Source: Faecalicoccus pleomorphus DSM 20574 (lineage in GTDB: Bacteria; Bacillota_I; Bacilli_A; Erysipelotrichales; Erysipelotrichaceae). From it: a stretch of 64,000 nt of DNA. The stretch is from positions 1-64,000 of the forward strand of contig NZ_ATUT01000001.1 of NCBI RefSeq assembly GCF_000420345.1, written 5' to 3'. A program made the translations under genes and the position numbers. Of this stretch, positions 16,743-55,675 are shown in pieces. The notes under the pieces are model-generated. The model searched no databases. It had not been told where the DNA came from and saw only the letters and a program-made list of their open reading frames with translations. Numbering within the stretch: position 1 is the stretch's first letter; each line of letters begins with the position of its first letter.

Positions 16743-16758
16743 TTGAAAACGTTTACAT
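16743..16758 (+). promoter_or_regulatory. Catabolite-responsive element (cre) in the ppdK promoter
   Basis: TTGAAAACGTTTACAT matches the Firmicutes cre consensus WTGNAARCGNWWNCAW at every position. It starts eight bases after the -10 box, covering the transcription start. A CcpA-type repressor bound here would block transcription initiation, so ppdK is likely repressed when preferred sugars are available. The consensus is established knowledge; binding is inferred. Confidence 0.75.
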
Positions 16759-21226: not shown

Positions 21227-22681
21227 TTATTCTAAATTAGTATATCCCATTAAATAAGTGTCGATTTCTTTTGCGCATTCTAATCCTTCGTGAATGGCCC
21301 ATACGACTAAGGATTGTCCTCTATGCGCATCACCGGCCGCAAAGATCTTTGTTTCTTTGGTCTGATAAGAATTAGGTTTCGTCACAAAAGTATTTCTTGG
21401 TGACATATCAAGGGCAAACGCTTTTTTTACATCATCTTCTACACCGATAAAACCAGCGGCAATCAACAATAAATCACATGGGATTTTTTGTTCTGATCCT
21501 TTGACAAATTCCATTTTCCCATTGGTGAATTGAACTTTGGTTAAAGTGACAGATTTTATCTTATCGTTTTTCACTTCAATTTCTTTGATCGTTCTTTCAT
21601 AAAGTCTTGGATCTTTTCCAAATACCGCAATGGCCTCTTGTTGTCCATAATCCGTTTTTAAGATTTTAGGCCATTCTGGCCATGGGTTGGAGGCTAGCCG
21701 ATCTTTGGGTGGCTCAGGCATCATTTCAATCTGTGTGACGGATTTACAGCCCTGACGAATGCTGGTTCCCACACAATCGTTTCCAGTATCACCACCACCT
21801 ACAATTACAACGTGTTTTCCTTTGGCACTTTCTGTTTTTGAACCTTTGATAAGATGTTTTGTGACATTGGTTAGATAATCGACCGCAAAGTAAATGCCTT
21901 TAGTATCTCGATTTTCAAAGACAAGATCTCTTGGCTTTTTAGAGCCGATGCACATGGCAATCGCATCGTATTCTTTTGTCAGTTCTTCTTTTGAAATGTC
22001 TATTCCTACATTGACATTACATTGAAACTGAATACCTTCTTCTTCTAAGAGTTGGATTCGTCTTTGAATGATTTCTTTTTCCAATTTCATGTTGGGAATG
22101 CCATACATCAATAATCCTCCGGGGGAATCTTCCTTCTCAAAGACAGTTACTTGATGTCCTCTTTGGTTTAGGGCATACGCAACACTGAGTCCGGCAGGGC
22201 CGGAGCCGATGACGGCGATTTTTTTATTTGTTCTGACTTCTGGTTTCTGTGCTTTCATCCAATGATTTTTAAAGCCTTCTTCAATAGTGAAGTATTCGTT
22301 TTCTTTGATGGTGACAGGATCACTGTCAACACCATTCAAACATGACTTTTCGCAAAGGGCAGGGCAGACACGTCCGGTAAATTCCGGAAAGGGATTTGTT
22401 TTCAACAATCTGGATAGTGCCTGCTGCATATGTCCTTTATAAATTTCATCATTCCATTCCGGAATCAAATTGTGTAACGGACAACCGGTTGTCATACCTT
22501 TTAATTCAATGCTCGACTGACAGAAAGGAACGCCGCAATTCATACAGCGAGCTCCTTGTTTTTGTCTTTCTGCTATATCCATGTCTTCATGGAATTCCAA
22601 AAAGTTTTGAATGCGTTGTAATGCACTAAGTGCAACATTATTTTTACGTTCATATTCTAAGAATCCTGTTGGTTTTCCCAT
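21227..22681 (-). CDS. gltD: Glutamate synthase, small (NADPH) subunit
   Basis: A 484-residue FAD and iron-sulfur subunit that passes electrons from NAD(P)H to the large subunit. The N-terminal cysteine clusters (RCMNCGVPFC, GCPLHNLIPEW, CPALCEKSCL) bind 4Fe-4S centres. The FAD site is IGSGPAGLSVAYAL, the NAD(P) site is VVIVGGGDTGNDC, and the C-terminal IFAAGDAHRGQSLV is the second FAD contact. AGGAGG precedes the ATG, nine bases after gltB. It is the last gene of the unit that starts at the leader near 31030. Confidence 0.97.
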   Translation of the reverse strand: MGKPTGFLEYERKNNVALSALQRIQNFLEFHEDMDIAERQKQGARCMNCGVPFCQSSIELKGMTTGCPLHNLIPEWNDEIYKGHMQQALSRLLKTNPFPEFTGRVCPALCEKSCLNGVDSDPVTIKENEYFTIEEGFKNHWMKAQKPEVRTNKKIAVIGSGPAGLSVAYALNQRGHQVTVFEKEDSPGGLLMYGIPNMKLEKEIIQRRIQLLEEEGIQFQCNVNVGIDISKEELTKEYDAIAMCIGSKKPRDLVFENRDTKGIYFAVDYLTNVTKHLIKGSKTESAKGKHVVIVGGGDTGNDCVGTSIRQGCKSVTQIEMMPEPPKDRLASNPWPEWPKILKTDYGQQEAIAVFGKDPRLYERTIKEIEVKNDKIKSVTLTKVQFTNGKMEFVKGSEQKIPCDLLLIAAGFIGVEDDVKKAFALDMSPRNTFVTKPNSYQTKETKIFAAGDAHRGQSLVVWAIHEGLECAKEIDTYLMGYTNLE

Positions 22682-22690
22682 GTTGACCTC

Positions 22691-25600
22691 CTACTTTTGA
22701 AAAGCCATGGTAAAGGCTTTTAATTCTGCTTCTTCTTGATGATACCCTTTGTCCTGTAAATCTTTGATGGATTTCAACATCTTTTTATAGTCGTTTGGAA
22801 TGATTTTTTTAAAGTGTTGCAGTTCATCATCAAAATGATCCAAAATGTGTCGTGCCACTGCTGAACTTGTTTCTTTATAATGCTCATGCAAGATTTCATA
22901 CAGTTTTTCTTTATCGGATTTACTAATGATTTCTTCAATGGATACAAGTTCTTTATTCACGTTTTTGTATAAAGCATGATCAACATCCAGAACGTAGGCT
23001 ACACCACCAGACATACCGGCGGCAAAGTTTTTTCCGGTCTTTCCTAAAACCACGGCATAACCGCCTGTCATATATTCCAGACCGTGATCGCCACAACCTT
23101 CGACAATTGCAGTCGCGCCTGAATTTCGTACACAGAAGCGTTCACCGGCTTTTCCGCGGATGAAGGCTTTACCACTGGTTGCACCATACAAGGCGACATT
23201 TCCGATAATGACATTTTCTTCGGCTTTAAAAGAGGATGTAGGATCGGGTGCAATCACAAGCTTTCCTCCGGATAATCCTTTACCAAAATAATCGTTGGCA
23301 TCACCGGTAATCTTTAACGTCAATCCTTTTGGAATGAAGGCACCCAGAGATTGACCGGCACCACCTTTTCCATGTACGACAAAGGTATCTTCCGGTAAGG
23401 TATCGCCAAATTGCCTGGTGATCAAAGAACCGAATAAAGTACCGACGCTTCGATCCGTGCTGGATAGATTCACATTAATCGTATGACTGATTTTTGAGTC
23501 CATATACGGTTTAAAACCAGGAATCAGTTGAGTAGAATCCAGCGTTGTTTCCAACTTAAAGTCATAGCCATCCCTTGGATCATAATGCACATTTCGATCT
23601 TTTCCAATCAGAGAATGTAACTCCAACATAGCTTGTCTTGGTTTTAAATCGTTTCGCATTTGCAGACAATCACTGTGACCAACCATTTCGTCGATGCTTC
23701 TAAAGCCTAGGCTTGCCATGATCTCACGTAATTCCTGGGCAATAAACAACATGAAATTCATTACGTATTCTGGTTTTCCTTTAAAGCGTTTACGCAAGGT
23801 ATCGTTTTGTGTCGCAACACCGAAAGGACAGGTATCTTGATTACAAACACGCATCATCATACATCCCATAGTTACTAATGGTGCAGTCGCAAAGCCAAAT
23901 TCCTCGGCTCCTAATAAGCAGGCAATGGCTACATCTCTTCCGGTCATCAGTTTACCATCGGTTTCCAGAATAACACGAGAGCGCAGGTGATTGTCAATCA
24001 GGCTTTGATGGGTTTCGGCCAATCCCAATTCCCAAGGTAATCCTGCATGGTGAATGCTGGATTGGGGAGCTGCTCCGGTACCACCATCATAACCGGAAAT
24101 CAATATAACGGTGGCTCCGGCTTTGGCTACACCGCTGGCAATGGTTCCGACACCGGCTTCACTGACAAGCTTAACGCTGATACGTGCCTCTTTATTGGCA
24201 TTTTTTAAATCATAGATTAACTGTGCAAGATCCTCAATAGAATAAATATCATGATGAGGTGGTGGTGAAATCAAGGTAACACCGGGAGTACTGTAACGCG
24301 TCTTGGCAATCCATGGATAGACTTTCTTACCTGGCAGATGTCCACCTTCGCCGGGCTTTGCACCCTGTGCCATTTTGATTTGTATTTCTTTGGCACTGAC
24401 CAAATAAGCGCTGGTTACGCCAAATCGACCGCTGGCGACCTGCTTGATGGCTGAATTTTTTTCAGTGCCTAAACGTTCCGGCTTTTCACCGCCTTCACCG
24501 GAATTAGATTTTCCGTGCAGTCGATTCATCGCAATGGCCATACAAGTATGTGCTTCTTCAGAAATTGAACCATACGACATTGCTCCGGTCTTAAATCGTT
24601 TTACGATCTCGGATACGGGTTCGACTTCTTCTAACGAAATCGGTTTTCGATTGGATTTGAATTCCAAAGAGGCTCTTAATGTATGAGGATGTTCCTTGTC
24701 ATTTACTCGTTTTGTATATTCTTTAAAAAGTTCGTAATCGTTTTCTCGCGTTGCCCTTTGCAGCGTTACGATGGTTTTCGGATCATAGAGATGATCTTCT
24801 TTACCTTGCCCACTTCTTAACTTATGGAAACCATAGCTGTCTAACTTGGTATCACAAGAAAGACCTAATGGATCAAAACCATGATCGTGATGAACGATAA
24901 GGTCTTCTTCAATTTCTTTTAAGCCGATTCCTCCTACACGCGATACGGTATTGGTGAAGTATTGATCAATCACTTCTTTAGAGATACCGATGGCTTCAAA
25001 AATCTGGGCACTTTGGTACGATTGTAGGGTAGAGATTCCCATCTTTGCGGCAATCTTGACGATACCATGAAGTATTGCTTCGTTATAGTCGCGAATCGCA
25101 ACAGAAGGCTCTTTATCTAAGATGTCTTTTTCAATCATTTCTTCAATGCATTCATGAGCCAGGTAAGGATAAATGGCCGTTGCCCCATAGCCTAATAAAC
25201 AGGCAAACTGATGAACATCTCTTGGCTCGCCACTCTCTAGGATGATGGATACAGCTGTTCTTTTTTTCGTTTGTACCAAATGATGTTCTAAAGCCGATAC
25301 TGCCAGCAGACTGGGGATAGCCATATGGCTTTCATCAACGCCTTTATCACTTAAAATTAAAATGTTGGCACCATCTCTATACAAACGATCACATTCGATA
25401 AACAGATGATGCAAAGCTTCTTGTAAAGGCATTCCGCGGTAGAACAAAAGGGAAATCGTAGCGCTTTGAAAGCCTTCTTTTTGCAAGTTTCGAATCTTAT
25501 CCATATCACGGGCATCCAAGATGGGGTTGTTGACTTCTAAAACTTTACAATTCGTACTTTTTTCCTGTAAGAGATTTCCATCGCTTCCGATATACACGGT

Positions 25601-27172
25601 TGTATCGGTGACAATTTCTTCACGAAGAGAATCAATCGGCGGATTGGTAACCTGAGCAAATAACTGTTTAAAGTAATGGAAGAGTAAAGGATGACGATTA
25701 CTTAAAACGGCTAATGGAATATCGGTACCCATACTGGCAGTAGGCTCATTGGCGTTTTTTGCCATAGGTAAGATTTCATCCTGGATATCTTCATATGTAT
25801 AACCAAAGACCTTGTACAGTCGATTGCGTTCTTCCTGTGTGTGCATTTGTGTTTTTTTATCCGGTGCTTTCAGATCTTTTAAATGCAGAAGATGTAAATC
25901 CAGCCATTCTCCGTATGGATTTGATGTCGCAAAATGATTTTTGATCTCGATATCGCTATACATCTTTTTAGATTTTGTATCGACCAATACCATTTTTCCC
26001 GGTTCCAATCGTGATTTACAGAGGATGTTTTCGGCAGGAATGTCCAATACACCGACTTCACTGGATAAGATCAATAGATTATCTTTGGTGATCATATAAC
26101 GGGCTGGGCGTAAACCGTTACGATCTAATACAGCACCTACCTGATCGCCATCTGAAAAGAGAATGGCAGCCGGACCATCCCATGGTTCCATCATGGTCGC
26201 ATAGTAGTGATAAAAATCTTTTTTATGTTCTTCCATAGGTACGTGTTTCCATGGCTCGGGGATCGTAATCATGACAGCTTTAGCCAAAGGCATACCATTC
26301 ATCATCAAGAATTCCAGCGTATTATCCAACATGGCACTATCGGAGCCTTTGGCATTGATGACTGGCAGGATCTTCTTTAAATTGGCATCCAGAAAGTCAG
26401 AAGACATGCTTTCTTCTCTGGCCAGCATTCGATCGACATTGCCGCGAATCGTATTGATTTCTCCATTGTGCGCGATCAGACGATTGGGATGCGCACGCTG
26501 CCAGGAAGGGGTTGTATTGGTTGAAAATCGAGAATGCACGATCGCAATAGCACTCTGATAATCTGTATCTTGCAGGTCTTCATAAAATTTACGAAGCTGT
26601 CCGACTAAAAACATTCCTTTATAAACAATTGTTCGACTGGAACAGGAGACTACATATGTTTCCGGGCAACTTTTTTCAAATTCACGACGAATCACATATA
26701 AAAGCCGATCAAACGCAAAGCCTTTTTCTATACCTTCCGGTTTTTCGATAAAAGCTTGTTCGATATAAGGCATGCAGTCTTTAGCCGATTGTCCTAAGAT
26801 TTCCGGGTGGCAACAAACGGTACGCCAACCTAATAATCGGGCACCTTCGTTTTTCACAATGGTTTCAAACAGACGTTTGTGTTGATTACGTTTTAATTCC
26901 TGCTGGGGAAAGAAAAACATACCAATGCCATATTCTCTTTCTTTTCCAAGGGAAATATTTTCCTGTTTGGCAATCTTTGAAAAGAATCGATGCGATATCT
27001 GTAAGAGTACACCAACACCATCGCCGACTTTACCACTGGCATCTTTTCCGGCACGGTGTTCCAGCTTTTCAACAATATGCAGCGCTTTATCCACAACATC
27101 ATAGCTTTGTTTTCCATCAATTTGCACCACGGTACCGATACCGCAGGCATCATGTTCAAAATTTGGATTCAT
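22691..27172 (-). CDS. gltB: Glutamate synthase, large subunit
   Basis: A 1493-residue enzyme that forms two glutamates from glutamine and 2-oxoglutarate. The N-terminal glutamine amidotransferase domain starts with a short propeptide, and its nucleophile is the cysteine in HDACGIG (residue 10). The central FMN-binding synthase domain has KPGEGGHLPGKKV, the SPPPHHDIYSIEDL region and the 3Fe-4S cysteines in MRVCNQDTCPFGVATQ. The C-terminal beta-helix has glycine-rich repeats. Full length for the family. Strong ribosome site AAGGAGG. It lies 12 bases after asnB. Confidence 0.98.
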   Translation of the reverse strand: MNPNFEHDACGIGTVVQIDGKQSYDVVDKALHIVEKLEHRAGKDASGKVGDGVGVLLQISHRFFSKIAKQENISLGKEREYGIGMFFFPQQELKRNQHKRLFETIVKNEGARLLGWRTVCCHPEILGQSAKDCMPYIEQAFIEKPEGIEKGFAFDRLLYVIRREFEKSCPETYVVSCSSRTIVYKGMFLVGQLRKFYEDLQDTDYQSAIAIVHSRFSTNTTPSWQRAHPNRLIAHNGEINTIRGNVDRMLAREESMSSDFLDANLKKILPVINAKGSDSAMLDNTLEFLMMNGMPLAKAVMITIPEPWKHVPMEEHKKDFYHYYATMMEPWDGPAAILFSDGDQVGAVLDRNGLRPARYMITKDNLLILSSEVGVLDIPAENILCKSRLEPGKMVLVDTKSKKMYSDIEIKNHFATSNPYGEWLDLHLLHLKDLKAPDKKTQMHTQEERNRLYKVFGYTYEDIQDEILPMAKNANEPTASMGTDIPLAVLSNRHPLLFHYFKQLFAQVTNPPIDSLREEIVTDTTVYIGSDGNLLQEKSTNCKVLEVNNPILDARDMDKIRNLQKEGFQSATISLLFYRGMPLQEALHHLFIECDRLYRDGANILILSDKGVDESHMAIPSLLAVSALEHHLVQTKKRTAVSIILESGEPRDVHQFACLLGYGATAIYPYLAHECIEEMIEKDILDKEPSVAIRDYNEAILHGIVKIAAKMGISTLQSYQSAQIFEAIGISKEVIDQYFTNTVSRVGGIGLKEIEEDLIVHHDHGFDPLGLSCDTKLDSYGFHKLRSGQGKEDHLYDPKTIVTLQRATRENDYELFKEYTKRVNDKEHPHTLRASLEFKSNRKPISLEEVEPVSEIVKRFKTGAMSYGSISEEAHTCMAIAMNRLHGKSNSGEGGEKPERLGTEKNSAIKQVASGRFGVTSAYLVSAKEIQIKMAQGAKPGEGGHLPGKKVYPWIAKTRYSTPGVTLISPPPHHDIYSIEDLAQLIYDLKNANKEARISVKLVSEAGVGTIASGVAKAGATVILISGYDGGTGAAPQSSIHHAGLPWELGLAETHQSLIDNHLRSRVILETDGKLMTGRDVAIACLLGAEEFGFATAPLVTMGCMMMRVCNQDTCPFGVATQNDTLRKRFKGKPEYVMNFMLFIAQELREIMASLGFRSIDEMVGHSDCLQMRNDLKPRQAMLELHSLIGKDRNVHYDPRDGYDFKLETTLDSTQLIPGFKPYMDSKISHTINVNLSSTDRSVGTLFGSLITRQFGDTLPEDTFVVHGKGGAGQSLGAFIPKGLTLKITGDANDYFGKGLSGGKLVIAPDPTSSFKAEENVIIGNVALYGATSGKAFIRGKAGERFCVRNSGATAIVEGCGDHGLEYMTGGYAVVLGKTGKNFAAGMSGGVAYVLDVDHALYKNVNKELVSIEEIISKSDKEKLYEILHEHYKETSSAVARHILDHFDDELQHFKKIIPNDYKKMLKSIKDLQDKGYHQEEAELKAFTMAFQK

Positions 27173-27184
27173 GTCATTTCCTCC

Positions 27185-28840: not shown

Positions 28841-30937
28841 TTACAGAATGCCAAATAACAGCTTTCCGTAAGTTGGGAATGGCCATACTTTGTCATCTGT
28901 CATGGTTTCTAAAACATCGCAAGGCTTTCGTAGTGCATCCATGCATGGCAAGATCGTATCGCGTACAAAGAAGGCCGCTTTTTCAAAATCTTGGATGGTA
29001 TGCAGAGCATTTGTTTTTTCTTCCAGTTCAGAACAAGCCTGATAGGCTTCTTTTAATAATGCGTTGATCTGTGTCAACATTTCTTTTTCGTAGGTTACAT
29101 CCATCTGGGCATCCAGCTGACATTTAGATAAGCAGGTATCACTGAGTTCTTTTGAATAGCGAGATACCGCCGGAAGAATTTCTTTTTTTGCCATATTGAT
29201 CATGGTTAAAGCTTCTATGTTGATGACTTTTGTGTATTCTTCCATGGTAATTTCATAACGTGATTCCATCTCTTCACGATCTAATACTTTTTCGGTTTCA
29301 AACAGGCGAATGTTTTCTTCGTGAATGAAATAAGGAAGAGCATCCGGTGTTGTTCGAAGATTCAACAAGCCACGTTTTTTAGCTTTTTCGATCCAGGCAT
29401 CATCATAACCATTGCCGTTGAAGATGATTCGCTGATGATCTTTCAATGTTTGTTTGATCAGGCTGTGAAGGCTACTTTCAAAATCATCCGCTTTTTCCAG
29501 CATATCGGCAAATTCACGCAGGGCATTGGCCACTACAGTATTTAAAACGAAGTTGCAGCCGGAAATAGAAGAACTGGAGCCTGGCATACGGAATTCAAAT
29601 TTATTTCCTGTAAAGGCAAATGGACTGGTTCGGTTTCGATCGGTCGTATCCATTGGCAGCTTAGGTAATACACAAGCGCCGATCTTCATCAATTTATGTT
29701 CTGTGCCATCATAAGGTTTATCATTGATGATAGCTTCTAATACGGCATTTAATTCATCGCCCAGGAAAACAGAAATAATAGCCGGTGGTGCTTCGTTTGC
29801 ACCTAGGCGATGATCGTTTCCGGCACTGGCAACGCTTAATCGAAGCAAATCCTGATGCTCATCCACAGCTTTGATGATAGCTGATAAGAACAATAAGAAC
29901 TGTGCATTTTCATAAGGCGTATCACCAGGTTCTAATAAGTTTTTACCGGTGTTGGTTGAAATCGACCAGTTATTGTGTTTACCGGAACCATTGATGCCCT
30001 CAAATGGTTTTTCATGAAGCAAAGCCACCATTCCATGTTTTTTGGCAATGCGCTGAATCAGTTCCATGGTAAGCTGATTATGATCAGTGGCGATATTTGT
30101 TGTCGAGAAGACCGGAGCCAGCTCATGTTGTGCAGGGGCTACTTCGTTATGTTCTGTCTTTGCCGCAACGCCCAACTTCCAAAGTTCTTCATTTAAGTCA
30201 TTCATGAAAGACTGTACACGCGATTTGATCGTACCAAAATAGTGATCTTCCATTTCCTGTCCTTTTGGACATGGGGCACCAAATAAAGTACGTCCGGTAT
30301 AAATCAAATCCTTACGTGTGGCATAGTAGTCTTTATCAACCAGAAAATATTCCTGTTCCGGACCCACTGTGGTTTTGATCGATGTTACATCGGTATTTCC
30401 AAACAGCTTTAAGATGCGCAAAGCTTGTGTGTTGATAGCTTCCATACTTCTAAGTAAAGGGGTTTTCTTATCCAGTGCGTGGCCGGTATAGGAACAAAAG
30501 GCGGTTGGAATACAAAGTACGTCGTCTTTGATAAAGGCATACGATGTAGGATCCCATGCGGTATAACCACGGGCTTCAAAGGTTGCTCTTAAACCACCGT
30601 TAGGAAAACTGGAAGCGTCCGGTTCTCCTTTGATCAATTCTTTTCCGGAAAAGCTCATAATAACTTTTCCGCCATCTACCGGTTCGATAAAACTGTCGTG
30701 CTTTTCGGCTGTTACACCAGTCATTGGTTGAAACCAGTGTGTATAGTGGGTTGCTCCCTGTGCAATGGCCCATTCTTTCATGGCATGAGCCACCGCATTG
30801 GCAATCTTTGGATTTAACGGTTTTCCTTCCTGAATTGTCTTTTGAAGCTCTTTGTACGTATCGGAAGCTAATCCTTCCTTCATACATTTTTCGTTGAATA
30901 CTTTGGATCCAAACAGATCCGGAATAGATTTTGCCAT
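28841..30937 (-). CDS. glnN: Type III glutamine synthetase (first copy)
   Basis: A 698-residue glutamine synthetase of the long GSIII type, which condenses ammonia with glutamate using ATP. Family features are the N-terminal GATHYTHWFQPMTG, EKHDSF, KGEPDASSFPNGGLRATFEARGYTAWDP, GPEQEYFLVD, HNEVAPAQHELAPVF, the glycine-rich FEGINGSGKHNNWS and DRNRTSPFAFTGNKFE. A longer frame opens at 31015, but the first 26 residues lie inside the leader hairpin. The ATG at 30937 has AAAGGAGG seven bases upstream. It is the first gene of the nitrogen unit and lies directly behind an attenuator-like terminator. Confidence 0.95.
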   Translation of the reverse strand: MAKSIPDLFGSKVFNEKCMKEGLASDTYKELQKTIQEGKPLNPKIANAVAHAMKEWAIAQGATHYTHWFQPMTGVTAEKHDSFIEPVDGGKVIMSFSGKELIKGEPDASSFPNGGLRATFEARGYTAWDPTSYAFIKDDVLCIPTAFCSYTGHALDKKTPLLRSMEAINTQALRILKLFGNTDVTSIKTTVGPEQEYFLVDKDYYATRKDLIYTGRTLFGAPCPKGQEMEDHYFGTIKSRVQSFMNDLNEELWKLGVAAKTEHNEVAPAQHELAPVFSTTNIATDHNQLTMELIQRIAKKHGMVALLHEKPFEGINGSGKHNNWSISTNTGKNLLEPGDTPYENAQFLLFLSAIIKAVDEHQDLLRLSVASAGNDHRLGANEAPPAIISVFLGDELNAVLEAIINDKPYDGTEHKLMKIGACVLPKLPMDTTDRNRTSPFAFTGNKFEFRMPGSSSSISGCNFVLNTVVANALREFADMLEKADDFESSLHSLIKQTLKDHQRIIFNGNGYDDAWIEKAKKRGLLNLRTTPDALPYFIHEENIRLFETEKVLDREEMESRYEITMEEYTKVINIEALTMINMAKKEILPAVSRYSKELSDTCLSKCQLDAQMDVTYEKEMLTQINALLKEAYQACSELEEKTNALHTIQDFEKAAFFVRDTILPCMDALRKPCDVLETMTDDKVWPFPTYGKLLFGIL

Positions 30938-30965
30938 GTCGATTCCTCCTTTAAGGCGATAAAAT

Positions 30966-31031
30966 AAAAAAACGGCAAAGCAAAAAGGGAGGAGAAAACT
31001 CCTGCTTTTTGGCATCCTTGCCGTTTCTATG
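30966..31031 (-). promoter_or_regulatory. Leader attenuator (terminator hairpin) upstream of GSIII
   Basis: Starting about six bases after the predicted transcription start, the minus-strand RNA can fold into one long three-tier hairpin: outer AACGGCAA/TTGCCGTT, middle CAAAAAG/CTTTTTG and inner AGGAG/CTCCT with a tetraloop, followed by seven Us. That is an intrinsic terminator placed before the first gene. The 5' part can instead form GGC-AAGGAT-GCC (31022-31011), a six-base loop with A at position 1 and G at position 4, which would break the outer terminator stem. ANTAR antiterminators are known to recognise such hexaloops, though normally as a pair; I see only one good loop. Confidence 0.65.
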
Positions 31032-36412: not shown

Positions 36413-38498
36413 ACTGTACAGATTTGAAAAGAAGATCATTGTAATCTGGTAATGGCCAGAAATCTTTAGGAATGTTTTGTTCGATGGAATCCGTCAGTGT
36501 TCGTATAGCTTCCATAAGTGGTAACAATTCATCCGCTGCATATTGTGCTTTTTCTTTTTCACTGGCTGGCACTTTATCAATCAAGTTTTCTAAAGTTTCC
36601 AGATGATTGGATACAAATTCCAATGGTTCATTGATGTTGAAAAGAATCTTTTCTTCCAGTGGAGAATTGATACCACTGGCTTTTTTTGTTTGTATGATCG
36701 TTGCCAGCTTTGCTTCGTATTCAAATACAGCCGGTAAGATCTGTTTTCGCAACATATAAGCCATTGTTCTAGCCTCGATCAAAACGACTTGATAGTAATT
36801 TTCCAGGAGAATGTTTTCACGGGCATGGAGTTCATTGGCTGAATATACTTTATGTTTTTCAAACATCGCCAGATTTTTAGGATCCGTATAATGCGGCAGA
36901 GCATCTGCTGTTGTCTTTAATTCCTGCAAGCCTCGTTTTTTGGCTTCCTGACGCCATTCTTCGCTATATCCATTTCCGGAGAAAAGAATTCGTTTATGTT
37001 CTTTGAGCGTTTTTTGAATCATGGAAATCACATGCTCGGTTCTTTGTTCTGGTGCATAGTTTTCCAGTTCATCGGCAAACTGTGTTAATTCTTCGGCTAC
37101 GATCGTATTTAAAATCGTATTGGGACAGGAGATGTTCAAGGATGATCCCAACATACGGAACTCAAATTTGTTTCCGGTAAACGCAAACGGAGAAGTACGG
37201 TTACGGTCGGTGGAATCCTTGGAAATCGGCGGTAAGGCACTAACACCTAACTCCAATTTACGATTGGTATTTTCCACATATTCCTTTCCTTGTTCAATTG
37301 CTTCCAGGATAGCGGTCAATTCATCGCCCAGATAGATGGAGATGATGGCCGGTGGTGCCTCATTGGCTCCCAGTCGATGATCGTTTCCGGCACTGGCAAC
37401 GGAAAGTCTAAGTAAATCCTGGTATTCGTCAACTCCTTTGATGATGGCCGCAAGAATCGTCAAGAAACGAATGTTGTCTTTTGGATCATCACCTGGCTCG
37501 AGGAGATTTTCATGGCTGTCGGTACTAAAGGACCAGTTATTGTGCTTACCGGAACCATTGACACCTTCAAATGGTTTTTCATGAAGCAGACAGACGAATC
37601 CATGATGGCGCGCCACCCGCTTTAAAACATCCATTGTGATTTGGTTTTGATCGTTGGCGCTGTTTACGGAACTGAAAACCGGTGCTAACTCAAACTGGCA
37701 GGGAGCCACCTCTTTATGTTCGGTCTTCGCAAAGACACCCAGCTTCCAAAGCTCCTGATCAACTTCTTCCATATACGCTTTGACTCTTTCGTCAATATTA
37801 CCGAAGTAGTGATCGTCTAATTCTTGTCCCTTGACCGGTGGTGCACCAAATAAAGTACGTCCGGTAACCATCAAATCCAGACGTTGTTTAAAGAGATTTT
37901 CATCGATCAGAAAATATTCTTGTTCCGGCCCAACGGTGATCGTAATCTTTTTGGTATGATAGCCCATCAGATTTAAAAGGCGAACCGCTGCTTTATCTAA
38001 GGCATCAATGCTTCGTAAAAGCGGAGTTTTCTTATCCAGCGAAGAGCCATCATAGCTGCAAAACAAAGTTGGTATATATAAAGTTTTTTCTTTGACAAAG
38101 GCAAAGCTTGTCGGATCCCATGCGGTATAGCCACGTGCTTCAAAGGTGGCGCGCAGTCCACCGCTAGGAAAACTGGAGGCATCCGGCTCTCCTTTGATCA
38201 ATTCTTTTCCGCGAAAATCGCTGATTACAGAATTAGGACCGGTCGGATTGATAAAGGCATCGTGTTTTTCGGCCGTGATGCCGGTCATTGGCTGAAACCA
38301 GTGTGTATAGTGCGTTGCGCCCTTGTCCATGGCCCAGTCTTTCATGGCATTGGCAACGGTATCGGCAATTTCTTTAGGGAGCTCTTTTCCATGCTCCATG
38401 ACATCGATCATCTGTTTATAGATCGCATGTGGTAAATAGCGTTGCATCGCAGCAGGCCCGAATACATCACATCCAAAAAATTCGTCAACAATCTTCAT
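36411..38498 (-). CDS. Type III glutamine synthetase (second copy)
   Basis: A 695-residue GSIII. It shares the signature blocks of the first copy (GATHYTHWFQPMTG, KGEPDASSFPSGGLRATFEARG, GPEQEYFLID, FEGVNGSGKHNNWS, DRNRTSPFAFTGNKFE) but diverges in the N- and C-terminal parts, so it is an old duplication or a separate acquisition, not a recent copy. GGAGGAAC precedes the ATG. It lies 36 bases after pyrG without a promoter or hairpin between, so the two are probably co-transcribed. Confidence 0.95.
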   Translation of the reverse strand: MKIVDEFFGCDVFGPAAMQRYLPHAIYKQMIDVMEHGKELPKEIADTVANAMKDWAMDKGATHYTHWFQPMTGITAEKHDAFINPTGPNSVISDFRGKELIKGEPDASSFPSGGLRATFEARGYTAWDPTSFAFVKEKTLYIPTLFCSYDGSSLDKKTPLLRSIDALDKAAVRLLNLMGYHTKKITITVGPEQEYFLIDENLFKQRLDLMVTGRTLFGAPPVKGQELDDHYFGNIDERVKAYMEEVDQELWKLGVFAKTEHKEVAPCQFELAPVFSSVNSANDQNQITMDVLKRVARHHGFVCLLHEKPFEGVNGSGKHNNWSFSTDSHENLLEPGDDPKDNIRFLTILAAIIKGVDEYQDLLRLSVASAGNDHRLGANEAPPAIISIYLGDELTAILEAIEQGKEYVENTNRKLELGVSALPPISKDSTDRNRTSPFAFTGNKFEFRMLGSSLNISCPNTILNTIVAEELTQFADELENYAPEQRTEHVISMIQKTLKEHKRILFSGNGYSEEWRQEAKKRGLQELKTTADALPHYTDPKNLAMFEKHKVYSANELHARENILLENYYQVVLIEARTMAYMLRKQILPAVFEYEAKLATIIQTKKASGINSPLEEKILFNINEPLEFVSNHLETLENLIDKVPASEKEKAQYAADELLPLMEAIRTLTDSIEQNIPKDFWPLPDYNDLLFKSVQ

Positions 38499-38534
38499 AC
38501 AAGTTCCTCCATTATGTTACTGTTATTTTACCAA

Positions 38535-45050: not shown

Positions 45051-45071
45051 TTTCAACGGGTGAGGAATGCT

Positions 45072-45914
45072 ATGTATAAAATATTGAAAAAAGAAGCTTT
45101 AAATCCGACTGTAACTCGTATGGTAATCGAAGCGCCTTTTGTAGCCAAACGAGCTAAAGCTGGCCAGTTTATTATTTTACGTGTTCGTGAGCAGGGAGAA
45201 CGTCTTCCTTTGACGATTGCCGACAGCAATCCGGAAAAAGGTACGGTTACGATCATTTTCCAGGTTGTCGGTGAAACAACCATGCTTTTAAACGCACTAA
45301 ATGAAGGAGATTGTTTAAAAGATTTCGCCGGTCCTTTAGGTAAACCAAGTGTGATCGATGGAAATAAGAAGGTTTGTATCATCGGTGGTGGTGTTGGATG
45401 TGCCATCGCTTATCCGACTGCCAAGGCTTTTCATGAAGCGGGTGCTGATGTGACAACGATCGTTGGTTTTCGAAACAAAGATCTTGTAATCCTGGAAGAG
45501 GAATTTAAGAAAGTCAGTGATGCCTATTATCTAATGAGTGATGATGGCTCTGTTGGAGAAAAAGGCTTAGTTACCAATAAGTTGGAAGACTTGATCACAG
45601 GCGGTGAAAAATTTGACGAAGTTGTGGCTATCGGGCCAATCGTTATGATGAAATTTGTCTCTTTGACGACAAAGAAATACAATATTCCAACTACGGTATC
45701 AATGAACCCTGTGATGATTGATGGTACCGGAATGTGTGGTGGTTGTCGTTTGAAAGTTGGAGATGAAATCAAGTTTGCCTGTGTAGATGGACCGGATTTT
45801 GATGGCCATTTAGTTGATTTTGATCAGGCTATGGCTCGAAATACGGCTTATAAAAGCTTTGAGGCACATAAGCGAGATGAAGCTTGTCATCTTCTGAATA
45901 AGGAGGTTGAATAA
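45072..45914 (+). CDS. nfnA: NfnA/SudB: ferredoxin-NADP+ oxidoreductase, small subunit
   Basis: A 280-residue flavoprotein of the dihydroorotate dehydrogenase electron-transfer family. It has an FAD-binding barrel (RLPLTIADSN), an NAD-binding domain (VCIIGGGVGCAIAYP) and, near the C-terminus, 2Fe-2S cysteines in GTGMCGGCRL and FACVDGPDFDGHLVDFD. The latter tail is typical of sulfide dehydrogenase/NfnA subunits. With NfnB it bifurcates electrons between NADPH, NAD+ and ferredoxin in anaerobes. TGAGGAA lies upstream of the ATG; a GTG at 45060 is less likely. nfnB starts two bases after it. Confidence 0.9.
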   Translation: MYKILKKEALNPTVTRMVIEAPFVAKRAKAGQFIILRVREQGERLPLTIADSNPEKGTVTIIFQVVGETTMLLNALNEGDCLKDFAGPLGKPSVIDGNKKVCIIGGGVGCAIAYPTAKAFHEAGADVTTIVGFRNKDLVILEEEFKKVSDAYYLMSDDGSVGEKGLVTNKLEDLITGGEKFDEVVAIGPIVMMKFVSLTTKKYNIPTTVSMNPVMIDGTGMCGGCRLKVGDEIKFACVDGPDFDGHLVDFDQAMARNTAYKSFEAHKRDEACHLLNKEVE

Positions 45915-45915
45915 T

Positions 45916-47298
45916 ATGCCAAATATGCGTCCGGATAAAGTTGCGATGCCAGTTCAGGATCCGGCTGTTCGTATCACAAATTTTGATGAAGTTGCTTTAG
46001 GATATACGCCGGAAATGGCGGTTGAAGAAGCAACTCGCTGCCTGCATTGTAAACATCAGCCCTGTGTAAGTGGTTGTCCGGTGAATATCCATATTCCGGA
46101 TTTTATTGAAAAAGTAGCGCAGGGAGAGTTTGAAGAAGCATATAAGATCATTTCTTTGACCAGCACATTACCGGCCATTTGCGGTCGTGTCTGTCCACAG
46201 GAAAATCAATGTGAAAAAGTTTGCGTTCGCGGTATTAAAAACGAGCCGGTTGCAATCGGTCGTTTGGAACGATTTGTTGCCGATTATCACAGAGAACATA
46301 ATGACACACCTTTTGAAAAACCAAAGTCAAATGGTCATAAGGTGGCCATCGTAGGTGCCGGACCTGCCGGCTTGACCTGTGCCGGAGACCTGGCCAAGCT
46401 GGGATATCAGGTAACGATCTTTGAAGCCCTTCATGTTGCCGGTGGCGTATTGATGTATGGTATTCCGGAGTTTCGTTTACCAAAGGAAATCGTGCAAAAA
46501 GAAATCAGCCACTTAAAAGAATTAGGTGTAGAAATCATCACAAACTTTATTGTGGGGCGTTCTGATTCCATCGATTCTATTATGGAAGAAGGCTATGAGG
46601 CTGTATTTATCGGTTCTGGAGCCGGTCTTCCTAACTTTATGGGATTACAGGGAGAAAACTTGATTGGTGTTTATTCGGCCAATGAATTTTTAACACGTAT
46701 CAATTTGATGAAAGCGTATCAGGAAGACAGCGATACACCGGTACAACATCCTACCAAATGTGTTGTCGTAGGTGGTGGAAACGTTGCCATGGATGCGGCT
46801 CGATGCGCCAGACGTCTAGGCGCTGAGGTGCATATCGTATATCGTCGAAGCATGGAAGAACTACCGGCTCGAAAAGAAGAGGTTGAGCATGCCGAAGAAG
46901 AAGGTATCATCTTTGATCTTTTATGTAATCCGGTTCGTGTCATCGGTGATGATCAAGGTTGGTGCAAGCAAATCGAATGTATTCGTATGGAACTGGGTGA
47001 ACCGGATGAAAGTGGAAGAAGAAGACCGGTGCCGATTGAAGGTTCTAATTTCACTATTGATATCGACTGTATGATCATGGCCATCGGTACAAGCCCGAAT
47101 CCATTGATTCGCCATACGACAAAAGGCTTGGAAGTCAATCGCAAAGGATGTTTCATTTGTGATGAAGATGGTTTAACTTCCCGCGAAAATATTTATGCCG
47201 GAGGCGATGCGGTTTCTGGTGCAGCCACGGTTATCAATGCGATGGGAGCCGGAAAAAGAGCAGCTGCTGCCATTGATAAGAAATTAATGGGTGAATAG
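45916..47298 (+). CDS. nfnB: NfnB: NADPH-dependent subunit (GltA-type homotetrameric family)
   Basis: A 460-residue iron-sulfur flavoprotein related to the small glutamate synthase subunit. Cysteine clusters are in RCLHCKHQPCVSGCPV and CGRVCPQENQCEKVCV, the FAD site is AIVGAGPAGLTCAGDL, the NADP site is CVVVGGGNVAMDAARCARRLG, and IYAGGDAVSGAATVI closes the FAD fold. The neighbour nfnA shows it is the transhydrogenase partner, not a glutamate synthase; the true GltD is at 21-23 kb. AGGAGG precedes the ATG. Confidence 0.9.
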   Translation: MPNMRPDKVAMPVQDPAVRITNFDEVALGYTPEMAVEEATRCLHCKHQPCVSGCPVNIHIPDFIEKVAQGEFEEAYKIISLTSTLPAICGRVCPQENQCEKVCVRGIKNEPVAIGRLERFVADYHREHNDTPFEKPKSNGHKVAIVGAGPAGLTCAGDLAKLGYQVTIFEALHVAGGVLMYGIPEFRLPKEIVQKEISHLKELGVEIITNFIVGRSDSIDSIMEEGYEAVFIGSGAGLPNFMGLQGENLIGVYSANEFLTRINLMKAYQEDSDTPVQHPTKCVVVGGGNVAMDAARCARRLGAEVHIVYRRSMEELPARKEEVEHAEEEGIIFDLLCNPVRVIGDDQGWCKQIECIRMELGEPDESGRRRPVPIEGSNFTIDIDCMIMAIGTSPNPLIRHTTKGLEVNRKGCFICDEDGLTSRENIYAGGDAVSGAATVINAMGAGKRAAAAIDKKLMGE

Positions 47299-47325: not shown

Positions 47326-47380
47326 TGGTCAAATGAATAAAAATAATTTGTGCTGCTATGATACATTGATTTCCTTGTAT

Positions 47381-47680
47381 AGGGAGGTAGCAATGAAAAG
47401 TTTCTATACATCTTCTATTAAGAAACTTTGGCGGTTACATCAAAACAAACACAGAGAGTTTTTAAACTGACAGAGCAGGATGTCTATCAAAAAAACGGTG
47501 CAAGTACTTTTTAGAAATCAAGGTATGTATAATAGACTGATTGTGATCTGTTTGCTTTACGCCTGATTTTGGCAGATTCTTTAGCATTTAGTCGATTATT
47601 TTTGATTTATATTATATGTGTGCCTTATTATGGTGGCATTAATAAGTCAAAAATCGATTCTTTTTAAGCGAGTTCTTTAG
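47381..47680 (+). other. Decayed coding remnant with a small ribosome-site-bearing ORF
   Basis: AGGGAGGTAG precedes an ATG at 47393 that opens a 25-codon frame ending at 47470. Beyond it short open stretches continue in other frames, for example 28 residues from 47480 ending after VICLLYA, then a hydrophobic stretch (SRLFLIYIICVPYY) in a third. The pattern is what several small deletions would leave of a membrane protein gene. I cannot name the original gene. The 25-residue peptide could still be translated. Confidence 0.35.
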
Positions 47681-47723
47681 CAATATTGTCATTCATTTTA
47701 TTTAAATTTTACAAATGAAAGGG

Positions 47724-47752
47724 TTTACATTTTATGAAAGCGGGTGTACTAT
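47724..47752 (+). promoter_or_regulatory. Promoter of the candidate small RNA
   Basis: TTTACA (47724-47729), exactly 17 bases and TACTAT (47747-47752). The start would be near 47759. No open frame with a ribosome site follows before the terminator. Confidence 0.65.
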
Positions 47753-47758
47753 AAAGAC

Positions 47759-47892
47759 GGATAAAGTTGAAATAAGGCTCAATTTCAACAACTCACATAC
47801 TTACATCCTTCCTTATTGTGTGTGAGACAATTTATTCATATCGATTCCTTTCGATACTTGATAAAAAGCACTCTAAGAGTGCTTTTTATCTG
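47759..47892 (+). ncRNA. Candidate small regulatory RNA, three hairpins and a terminator
   Basis: Between the promoter at 47724 and a strong terminator lie about 130 bases without coding potential but with a regular fold. Hairpin 1: GTTGAAAT/ATTTCAAC, loop AAGGCTCA (47766-47789). Hairpin 2: CTCACATAC/GTGTGTGAG, nine pairs with one G-U, and a 17-base loop containing TCCTTCCTT (47792-47826). Hairpin 3: TATCGA/TCGATA with loop TTCCTT (47839-47856). The terminator closes it. The loops of hairpins 2 and 3 are complementary to AAGGAA-type Shine-Dalgarno sites, suggesting base pairing with mRNAs. It does not match 6S, tmRNA, SRP or RNase P RNA as I know them. Confidence 0.6.
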
Positions 47893-47895
47893 TTT
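47861..47895 (+). terminator. Terminator of the candidate small RNA
   Basis: ATAAAAAGCACTC TAA GAGTGCTTTTTAT, a perfect 13-bp stem with a three-base loop, followed by CTGTTTT. Confidence 0.9.
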
Positions 47896-47966
47896 TATGC
47901 AAAGAAATATATTTTTTTCATAGTAGGTGTTATACTCCTTTCAAGAATAAAGAAAAGGAAATCCAT

Positions 47967-55414: not shown

Positions 55415-55675
55415 ATAAATTGATGTTGAAAAGAAGAGTACTTACAGTATTTCTTTGAGAAGAGAGTCCTTGTATGCTGAAAGAGGATAAAGAAATCTGT
55501 TGGGAACATGGTCTTGGAGTTGCAAAGTCGATATTTAGACTTTGACGGGTTCACCCGTTATCGTGATAGAGTATGATGGTACTTGATGAGGTAAGATGAG
55601 TGATCATTTTACGAAGATAGGTGGTAACACGAAGTTTCAGCTTTCGTCCTATTAGGATGAAAGCTTTTTTTATAG
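55415..55675 (+). promoter_or_regulatory. T-box leader, methionine type
   Basis: The conserved T-box segment AGGTGGTAACACG lies at 55619-55631 and is followed by a terminator stem AGCTTTC.../...GAAAGCT (55639-55665) with a T-run. The bulge TGGT pairs with the ACCA end of a tRNA with discriminator A, as in tRNA-Met. In the stem I region an ATG at 55508-55510 (GGAACATGG) is the best specifier codon. Uncharged tRNA-Met would allow transcription of the methionine importer that follows. The specifier assignment is inferred from context and position. Confidence 0.88.

What the first reader, a model, noticed from the sequence alone, without database searches (positions are those of the whole stretch)
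47724..47895. Candidate new small RNA with pyrimidine-rich loops complementary to ribosome sites
A promoter with exact 17-base spacing, three successive hairpins (8, 9 and 6 pairs, one G-U wobble in the second) and a perfect 13-bp terminator lie in a stretch without coding potential. Two loops expose TCCTTCCTT and TTCCTT, complementary to the AAGGAA-type Shine-Dalgarno sequences in front of many genes here. Firmicutes sRNAs with C/U-rich loops (for example staphylococcal Rsa RNAs) work this way. I cannot match it to a known family.
Basis: partly seen in the sequence, partly recalled or inferred. Interest (0 to 1): 0.72.

Follow-up and report, generated by a model that had tools for sequence, protein, structure and literature searches.

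The report
New gut-bacterial small regulatory RNA family
This is the gene for a small regulatory RNA, absent from the RNA family database, that is conserved across about twenty genera of one gut-bacterial family and sits behind a sugar-response switch; it probably shuts down particular messages by pairing with their ribosome start sites, though its targets are not yet known.

Summary
The finding is real. The + strand of 47724-47890 carries a promoter, three hairpins and an intrinsic terminator (folding z -6.8). Homologues occur in 34 of 316 Erysipelotrichales genomes, all Erysipelotrichaceae, about 20 genera. Hairpins 1, 2 and the terminator covary strongly (201 two-sided changes, 0 of 500 shuffles). 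Three stretches hardly vary: loop 1 (GGCTC), loop 2 (CATCCTTCCTT) and a 26-nt segment with hairpin 3. There is no Rfam match or conserved reading frame, and orientation to neighbours varies, so it is a free-standing sRNA. The -35 box lies inside a 16-bp element (ATGWAAGGGTTTACAT) kept in 26 of 28 homologues; it fits the CcpA (cre) consensus except at the central C and also precedes malQ. The host has HPr kinase and a CcpA-like protein but no detectable Hfq. Best reading: a CcpA-repressed, Hfq-independent sRNA that blocks translation with C/U-rich loops, working like S. aureus RsaI without being a detectable member. No target is established; glutamine synthetase III (glnN) is the best lead, manZ a weaker one. 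New member of a known kind.

The parts
47715..47730 (+). operator-like 16-bp pseudo-palindrome ATGAAAGGGTTTACAT, cre-like (15 of 16 positions of WTGNNARCGNWWWCAW; central C replaced by G), overlapping the -35 box
   Evidence: 26 of 28 homologues score at least 14 of 16 against the family element
47724..47729 (+). -35 hexamer TTTACA
47747..47752 (+). -10 hexamer TACTAT, 17-nt spacer (17 in 23 of 28 homologues)
47759..47890 (+). predicted sRNA, about 130 nt; start predicted, not mapped
47766..47789 (+). hairpin 1, 8 pairs, loop AAGGCTCA with conserved GGCTC; stem covaries
47792..47826 (+). hairpin 2, 9 pairs (one G-U), 17-nt loop with conserved CATCCTTCCTT; stem covaries
47831..47856 (+). near-invariant 26-nt segment TTTATTCATATCGATTCCTTTCGATA, single-stranded part plus hairpin 3 (6 pairs, loop TTCCTT)
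47860..47890 (+). intrinsic terminator, 14-15 pairs, covaries

Best explanation
A free-standing, trans-acting small RNA of about 130 nt found in the Erysipelotrichaceae. Inferred control: a LacI-family regulator, most likely CcpA with HPr-Ser-P, binds the cre-like element over the -35 box when preferred sugar is plentiful and keeps the gene off; when sugar runs short the RNA is made. Inferred action: without Hfq, it presents a GGCUC loop, a CAUCCUUCCUU loop and the segment UUUAUUCAUAUCGAUUCCUUU, which pair with the Shine-Dalgarno and start-codon regions of target mRNAs and block 30S binding. Shown: the conserved structure, covariation, fixed loops, promoter and operator, terminator, and independence from neighbouring genes. 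Not shown: transcription, CcpA binding, and any target.
For: Found in 34 of 316 Erysipelotrichales genomes, 20 genera. In a 28-sequence alignment 93.3% of cells pair, 28 of 37 pairs show two-sided changes and 201 cells changed on both sides against 55 in shuffles (0 of 500), and sliding the partners destroys it. The plain 17-sequence alignment, not fitted to a model, also beats all 500 shuffles on pairing and two-sided changes. Loops and the hairpin 3 segment are fixed while stems change. The operator lies over the -35 box in 26 of 28, with a sigma-A -10 usually 17 nt on. The GG-centred element also precedes malQ in four species; related CG-centred sites precede ppdK, pgm, glgB and glgC in this species or relatives. 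The genome has a CcpA-like protein (TIGR01481, 242 bits, below the 442 cut-off) and HPr kinase, with no detectable Hfq in 8 of 8 genomes. CcpA sites without the central CG are established in C. difficile (PMC3510511). The RNA is independent of its neighbours: the gltA-like gene lies beside it in 21 of 28 loci, but orientation and downstream gene vary. Start regions bind loop 2 and hairpin 3 better than gene interiors do, and hairpin 3 more than its own shuffles (z -2.4).
Against: No transcript data. The operator almost never has the central CG of a Bacillus-type cre (1 of 28, and that a weak site), so another LacI-type regulator is possible. Loop 2 does not beat its own shuffles (z -0.9), and its exact complement AAGGAAGGATG occurs nowhere else in this genome. 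Both arms of hairpin 3 are fixed, which one-sided pairing does not require. No target is conserved across genera with certainty.
Confidence: 0.6

Rival explanations
1. The RNA is a real trans-acting sRNA, but its operator is read by a different LacI-family or other repressor (for example a maltose or glycogen regulator) rather than CcpA.
For: The GG-centred form of the site is the rule here and also precedes malQ in four species and a maltose-6-phosphate-glucosidase-like gene; the CcpA-like protein scores below the family cut-off.
Against: Related CG-centred sites precede general CcpA-type genes such as ppdK and pgm; CcpA tolerates sites without the central CG in C. difficile; a one-pathway maltose regulator would not explain that spread.
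Confidence: 0.22
2. The RNA works by binding a protein or another sRNA (a sponge), with hairpin 3 as a sequence-specific recognition element, and not by pairing with mRNA start sites.
For: Hairpin 3 is fixed on both arms, as expected for a recognition element; RsaI, the closest functional parallel, also binds other sRNAs (PMC9217828).
Against: In L058 the stem of hairpin 3 is broken but ATCGATTTCCTT is kept, which favours sequence over stem; the loops match start regions better than gene interiors.
Confidence: 0.12
3. The element is a cis-acting leader of the downstream gene (efp or others), not a separate RNA.
For: efp follows on the same strand in many relatives.
Against: A terminator ends the RNA; a TTGACA-type promoter is visible after it in several relatives; the downstream gene here is a uracil-DNA-glycosylase-like gene; in L025 and L029 efp points the other way.
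Confidence: 0.03
4. The stretch encodes a small protein on either strand.
For: The minus strand reads AAAGGAATCGATATGAATAAA, a plausible ribosome site and start.
Against: The frame from that start differs in length and sequence between genera and is absent in L051, L053 and L058; pairs covary as RNA.
Confidence: 0.02

Closest known systems
RsaI of Staphylococcus aureus
   Same: sRNA of similar size (111 nt), repressed by CcpA in glucose, represses translation by pairing with Shine-Dalgarno sites of glcU_2 and fn3K (PMC9266662)
   Different: No Rfam sRNA match; RsaI has two GGGG tracts that bind RsaE (PMC9217828), which this RNA lacks; CcpA control is only predicted here
RsaE / RoxS
   Same: C-rich seed that pairs with Shine-Dalgarno sites; metabolic sRNA of Bacillota
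   Different: No duplicated UCCCC seed; Rfam RsaE score 17.5 against a cut-off of 79
csRNAs of streptococci (CiaR-dependent)
   Same: Small Bacillota sRNA with terminator and pyrimidine-rich unpaired stretches (from general knowledge)
   Different: Rfam csRNA score 18.8 against 57; no evidence of CiaR control
6S RNA of lactic acid bacteria
   Same: cre site at the promoter, under negative CcpA control (PMC8414754)
   Different: No long rod with central bubble; separate short hairpins; no Rfam match

Membership tests
RsaE/RoxS (RF01820) | covariance-model score at or above the gathering score | tested here: not met
   17.5 bits against 79
RsaE/RoxS (RF01820) | duplicated UCCC(C) seed | tested here: not met
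   no UCCC in 47759-47890; the repeated motif is UUCCUU
RsaI | match to an Rfam 15 sRNA family at gathering score | tested here: not met
   no sRNA family in the window or 13 homologous loci
RsaI | two GGGG tracts | tested here: not met
   no GGGG in 47759-47890; feature from PMC9217828
RsaI | repression by CcpA | tested here: inconclusive
   cre-like element over -35 in 26 of 28 homologues, central CG lacking
RsaI | pairing with Shine-Dalgarno sites of sugar-uptake mRNAs | tested here: inconclusive
   manZ 10-bp match in this species, broken in F. acidiformans
csRNA (RF02379) | covariance-model score at or above the gathering score | tested here: not met
   18.8 bits against 57
trans-acting bacterial sRNA (general kind) | own promoter and intrinsic terminator in an intergenic region | tested here: met
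trans-acting bacterial sRNA (general kind) | conserved secondary structure with covariation | tested here: met
trans-acting bacterial sRNA (general kind) | discrete transcript in the cell | not testable with these tools
   no RNA-seq available
trans-acting bacterial sRNA (general kind) | defined mRNA target | tested here: inconclusive
   leads only: glnN, manZ, a DUF3795-like gene
CcpA cre site | WTGNNARCGNWWWCAW consensus | tested here: inconclusive
   15 of 16 here; central C replaced by G; 14-15 of 16 in 26 of 28 homologues

The most novel reading that the evidence does not exclude
The RNA ties carbon supply to nitrogen assimilation: released from CcpA when sugar is short, it pairs through UUUAUUCAUAUCGAUUCCUUU with the ribosome site and start codon of a glutamine synthetase III gene (glnN) and stops ammonium assimilation. 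In this genome 11 of 12 consecutive positions pair, including CAU with the AUG (-19.5 kcal/mol for the whole duplex, rank 7 of 379 sampled start regions); the orthologue ranks 1 of 18, 2 of 31 and 3 of 36 among sampled start regions in three relatives, two of which belong to one genus.
Probability: 0.12. Interest if true: 0.7.

Novelty: new member of a known kind. Interest (0 to 1): 0.46.

Why it matters
The Erysipelotrichaceae are common gut bacteria for which the paper searches made here turned up no characterised sRNA. A conserved sRNA gene with a sugar-response operator, in genomes with no detectable Hfq, gives a first handle on post-transcriptional control in this family, and a test of whether CcpA-repressed C/U-loop sRNAs like RsaI arose more than once in Bacillota. 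The alignment and covariance model would support a new Rfam family.

Tried and rejected
Rfam at gathering score and down to E = 10: nothing convincing; the best was a sub-threshold minus-strand match at E 0.067. Leader of efp or part of the gltA transcript: rejected on promoter, terminator and varying orientation. Small ORF on either strand: rejected. Exact loop 2 target AAGGAAGGATG: none elsewhere in this genome. Starts with AAGGAAGG before ATG in four genomes: mixed genes (rpsB, rpsP, valS, thrS, HAD phosphatases and others), none conserved across genera. Starts of the form AAGGA-N-ATGAATAAA in 16 genomes: common, genes not followed up. efp as target: energies ordinary and unsteady. manZ: 10-bp match not kept in F. 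acidiformans. A stem closing hairpins 1 and 2 (GGATAAA with TTTATTC) is seen in many members but missing in others (L010, L022, L025), so it is not claimed. The supplement of the human-microbiome structured-RNA survey (PMC8040213) could not be read, so this RNA may be among its unnamed candidates.

Full report
What is there. The promoter match alone is no more than chance gives in this AT-rich sequence. The fold is not: -45.3 kcal/mol against -21.5 +/- 3.5 in shuffles, z -6.8.

Homologues. The DNA has matches in 9 of 59 relatives besides itself and in 15 named contigs, including Faecalicoccus acidiformans, Floccifex porci, Catenisphaera adipataccumulans, Merdibacter massiliensis and Holdemanella and Ileibacterium bins. 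The window's genus is therefore taken to be Faecalicoccus; the species is an inference. A covariance model from 17 members finds the RNA in 35 of 273 family genomes at E <= 0.01; the weakest of these (L060, L061) do not look genuine. A second model finds 34 of 316 genomes of the order at E <= 0.001, all in the same family, 20 genera; its weakest hits (G029, G245) were not confirmed by eye. There is one match per genome.

Structure. In 28 aligned members, 93.3% of cells pair, 28 of 37 pairs have two-sided changes and 201 cells are changed on both sides, against 55 +/- 6 in shuffles. Sliding the partners by 1-3 columns brings cells paired down to 34-53%. That alignment was fitted to the model, but the plain MAFFT alignment of 17 members also beats every shuffle on cells paired and two-sided changes, and RNAalifold finds the same stems. 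Hairpin 3 never changes on both sides. Its invariance is partly ascertainment for the loci fetched with its own pattern, but it also holds nearly unchanged in members found by the model (L037, L046, L052, L055-L057). In L058 the stem is broken while ATCGATTTCCTT is kept, which argues that the sequence rather than the stem matters. A diverged group (L010, L025, L029, L052, L055-L059) has an extra 5' hairpin (such as GAAATAAG ... TTATTTC).

Independence. No conserved reading frame exists on either strand. The gltA-like gene is the neighbour in 21 of 28 loci and efp in 19, but orientation varies (L025, L029, L056), efp is absent here, and a TTGACA-type promoter follows the terminator in several relatives. 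This is a free-standing gene.

Control. The -35 box lies inside ATGWAAGGGTTTACAT, kept at 14 or more of 16 positions in 26 of 28 homologues; the spacer to the -10 is 17 nt in 23. It fits the Bacillus cre consensus at 14-15 of 16 positions, missing the central C. CcpA of C. difficile binds sites that lack the central CG (PMC3510511). The pattern TGWAANBGNTTWCA is found more often than its reversed control in all eight genomes searched, though by one site only in one of them (15 against 14). Its sites precede ppdK (window 16744), pgm, glgB, glgC, malQ (GG-centred, four species), PTS, murQ and glycosidase genes. These gene names rest on reading the sequences, not on a family scan. The genome has a CcpA-like protein (TIGR01481, 242 bits, cut-off 442) and HPr kinase above cut-off in 8 of 8 genomes. 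Hfq is not detected in 8 of 8; a strongly diverged Hfq is not excluded. CcpA control is therefore likely but inferred. A site over the -35 box suggests repression.

Action. The fixed loops are GGCTC, CATCCTTCCTT and TTTATTCATATCGATTCCTTT. Loop 2 and the hairpin 3 segment bind start regions of the 56 window genes better than gene interiors (-7.45 against -5.00, and -9.74 against -6.69 kcal/mol). Against shuffles of themselves the hairpin 3 segment stands out (z -2.4) and loop 2 does not (z -0.9). 'Complementary to many start sites here' is thus weak for loop 2 and moderate for hairpin 3. The segment reads as the complement of a ribosome site plus ATG plus AATAAA.

Target leads. (1) glnN, a glutamine synthetase III gene (window 30937, minus strand): hairpin 3 pairs with GGAATCGACATG, including the start codon, -19.5 kcal/mol, rank 1 of 56 in the window and 7 of 379 in a 23% sample of the genome. 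The orthologue ranks 1 of 18 (G004), 2 of 31 (G190) and 3 of 36 (G191); G190 and G191 are one genus. It was picked as best in the window and then tested, and ranks are within sampled stretches only. (2) manZ of the mannose PTS (contig C1:238766): 10-bp perfect match at the Shine-Dalgarno site, not kept in F. acidiformans. (3) A DUF3795-like gene (C1:284132): 12-bp perfect match to loop 2, not tested elsewhere. None is established.

Comparison. RsaI of S. aureus is CcpA-repressed and blocks the Shine-Dalgarno sites of glcU_2 and fn3K (PMC9266662). This RNA probably works in that way. It is not a detectable member of that or any Rfam family. It may be among unnamed candidates of large structured-RNA surveys (PMC8040213), which could not be checked.

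Verdict. The structural and conservation claims are strong, the CcpA link is good, and the base-pairing mechanism is plausible but open until targets are shown.

Noticed in passing
window 28841-31015 (-) and 36413-38516 (-): Two glutamine synthetase type III genes lie within 10 kb, near a glutamate synthase large-subunit gene (22693-27184 -), its apparent small subunit (21229-22690 -) and a gltA-like pair (45060-47298 +); nitrogen genes surround the sRNA locus.
   Followed up: partly
window 16744-16757: CG-centred cre-like site TGAAAACGTTTACA just after the -10 box of the pyruvate phosphate dikinase gene.
   Followed up: yes
window 47330-47710: The gap between the gltA-like gene and the RNA is about 460 nt here but 47-80 nt in the nearest relatives; it holds no intact ORF over 45 codons and may be a decayed insertion.
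   Followed up: no
L010, L025, L029, L052, L055-L059: A diverged clade of the RNA carries an additional 5' hairpin (such as GAAATAAG ... TTATTTC) ahead of hairpin 1.
   Followed up: partly
L085, L086, L088, L091: GG-centred cre-like sites sit 16-27 nt before the start codon of malQ in four species; in the two Faecalicoccus genomes the site's GGGG may double as the ribosome site.
   Followed up: partly
window 47856-47951 (-): Sub-threshold Rfam match to STnc130 on the minus strand (27.3 bits against 55), apparently explained by the shared AT-rich terminator.
   Followed up: partly
window 55417-55654: T-box leader (RF00230, 110.5 bits); T-boxes also lie near the RNA in L055-L059.
   Followed up: no
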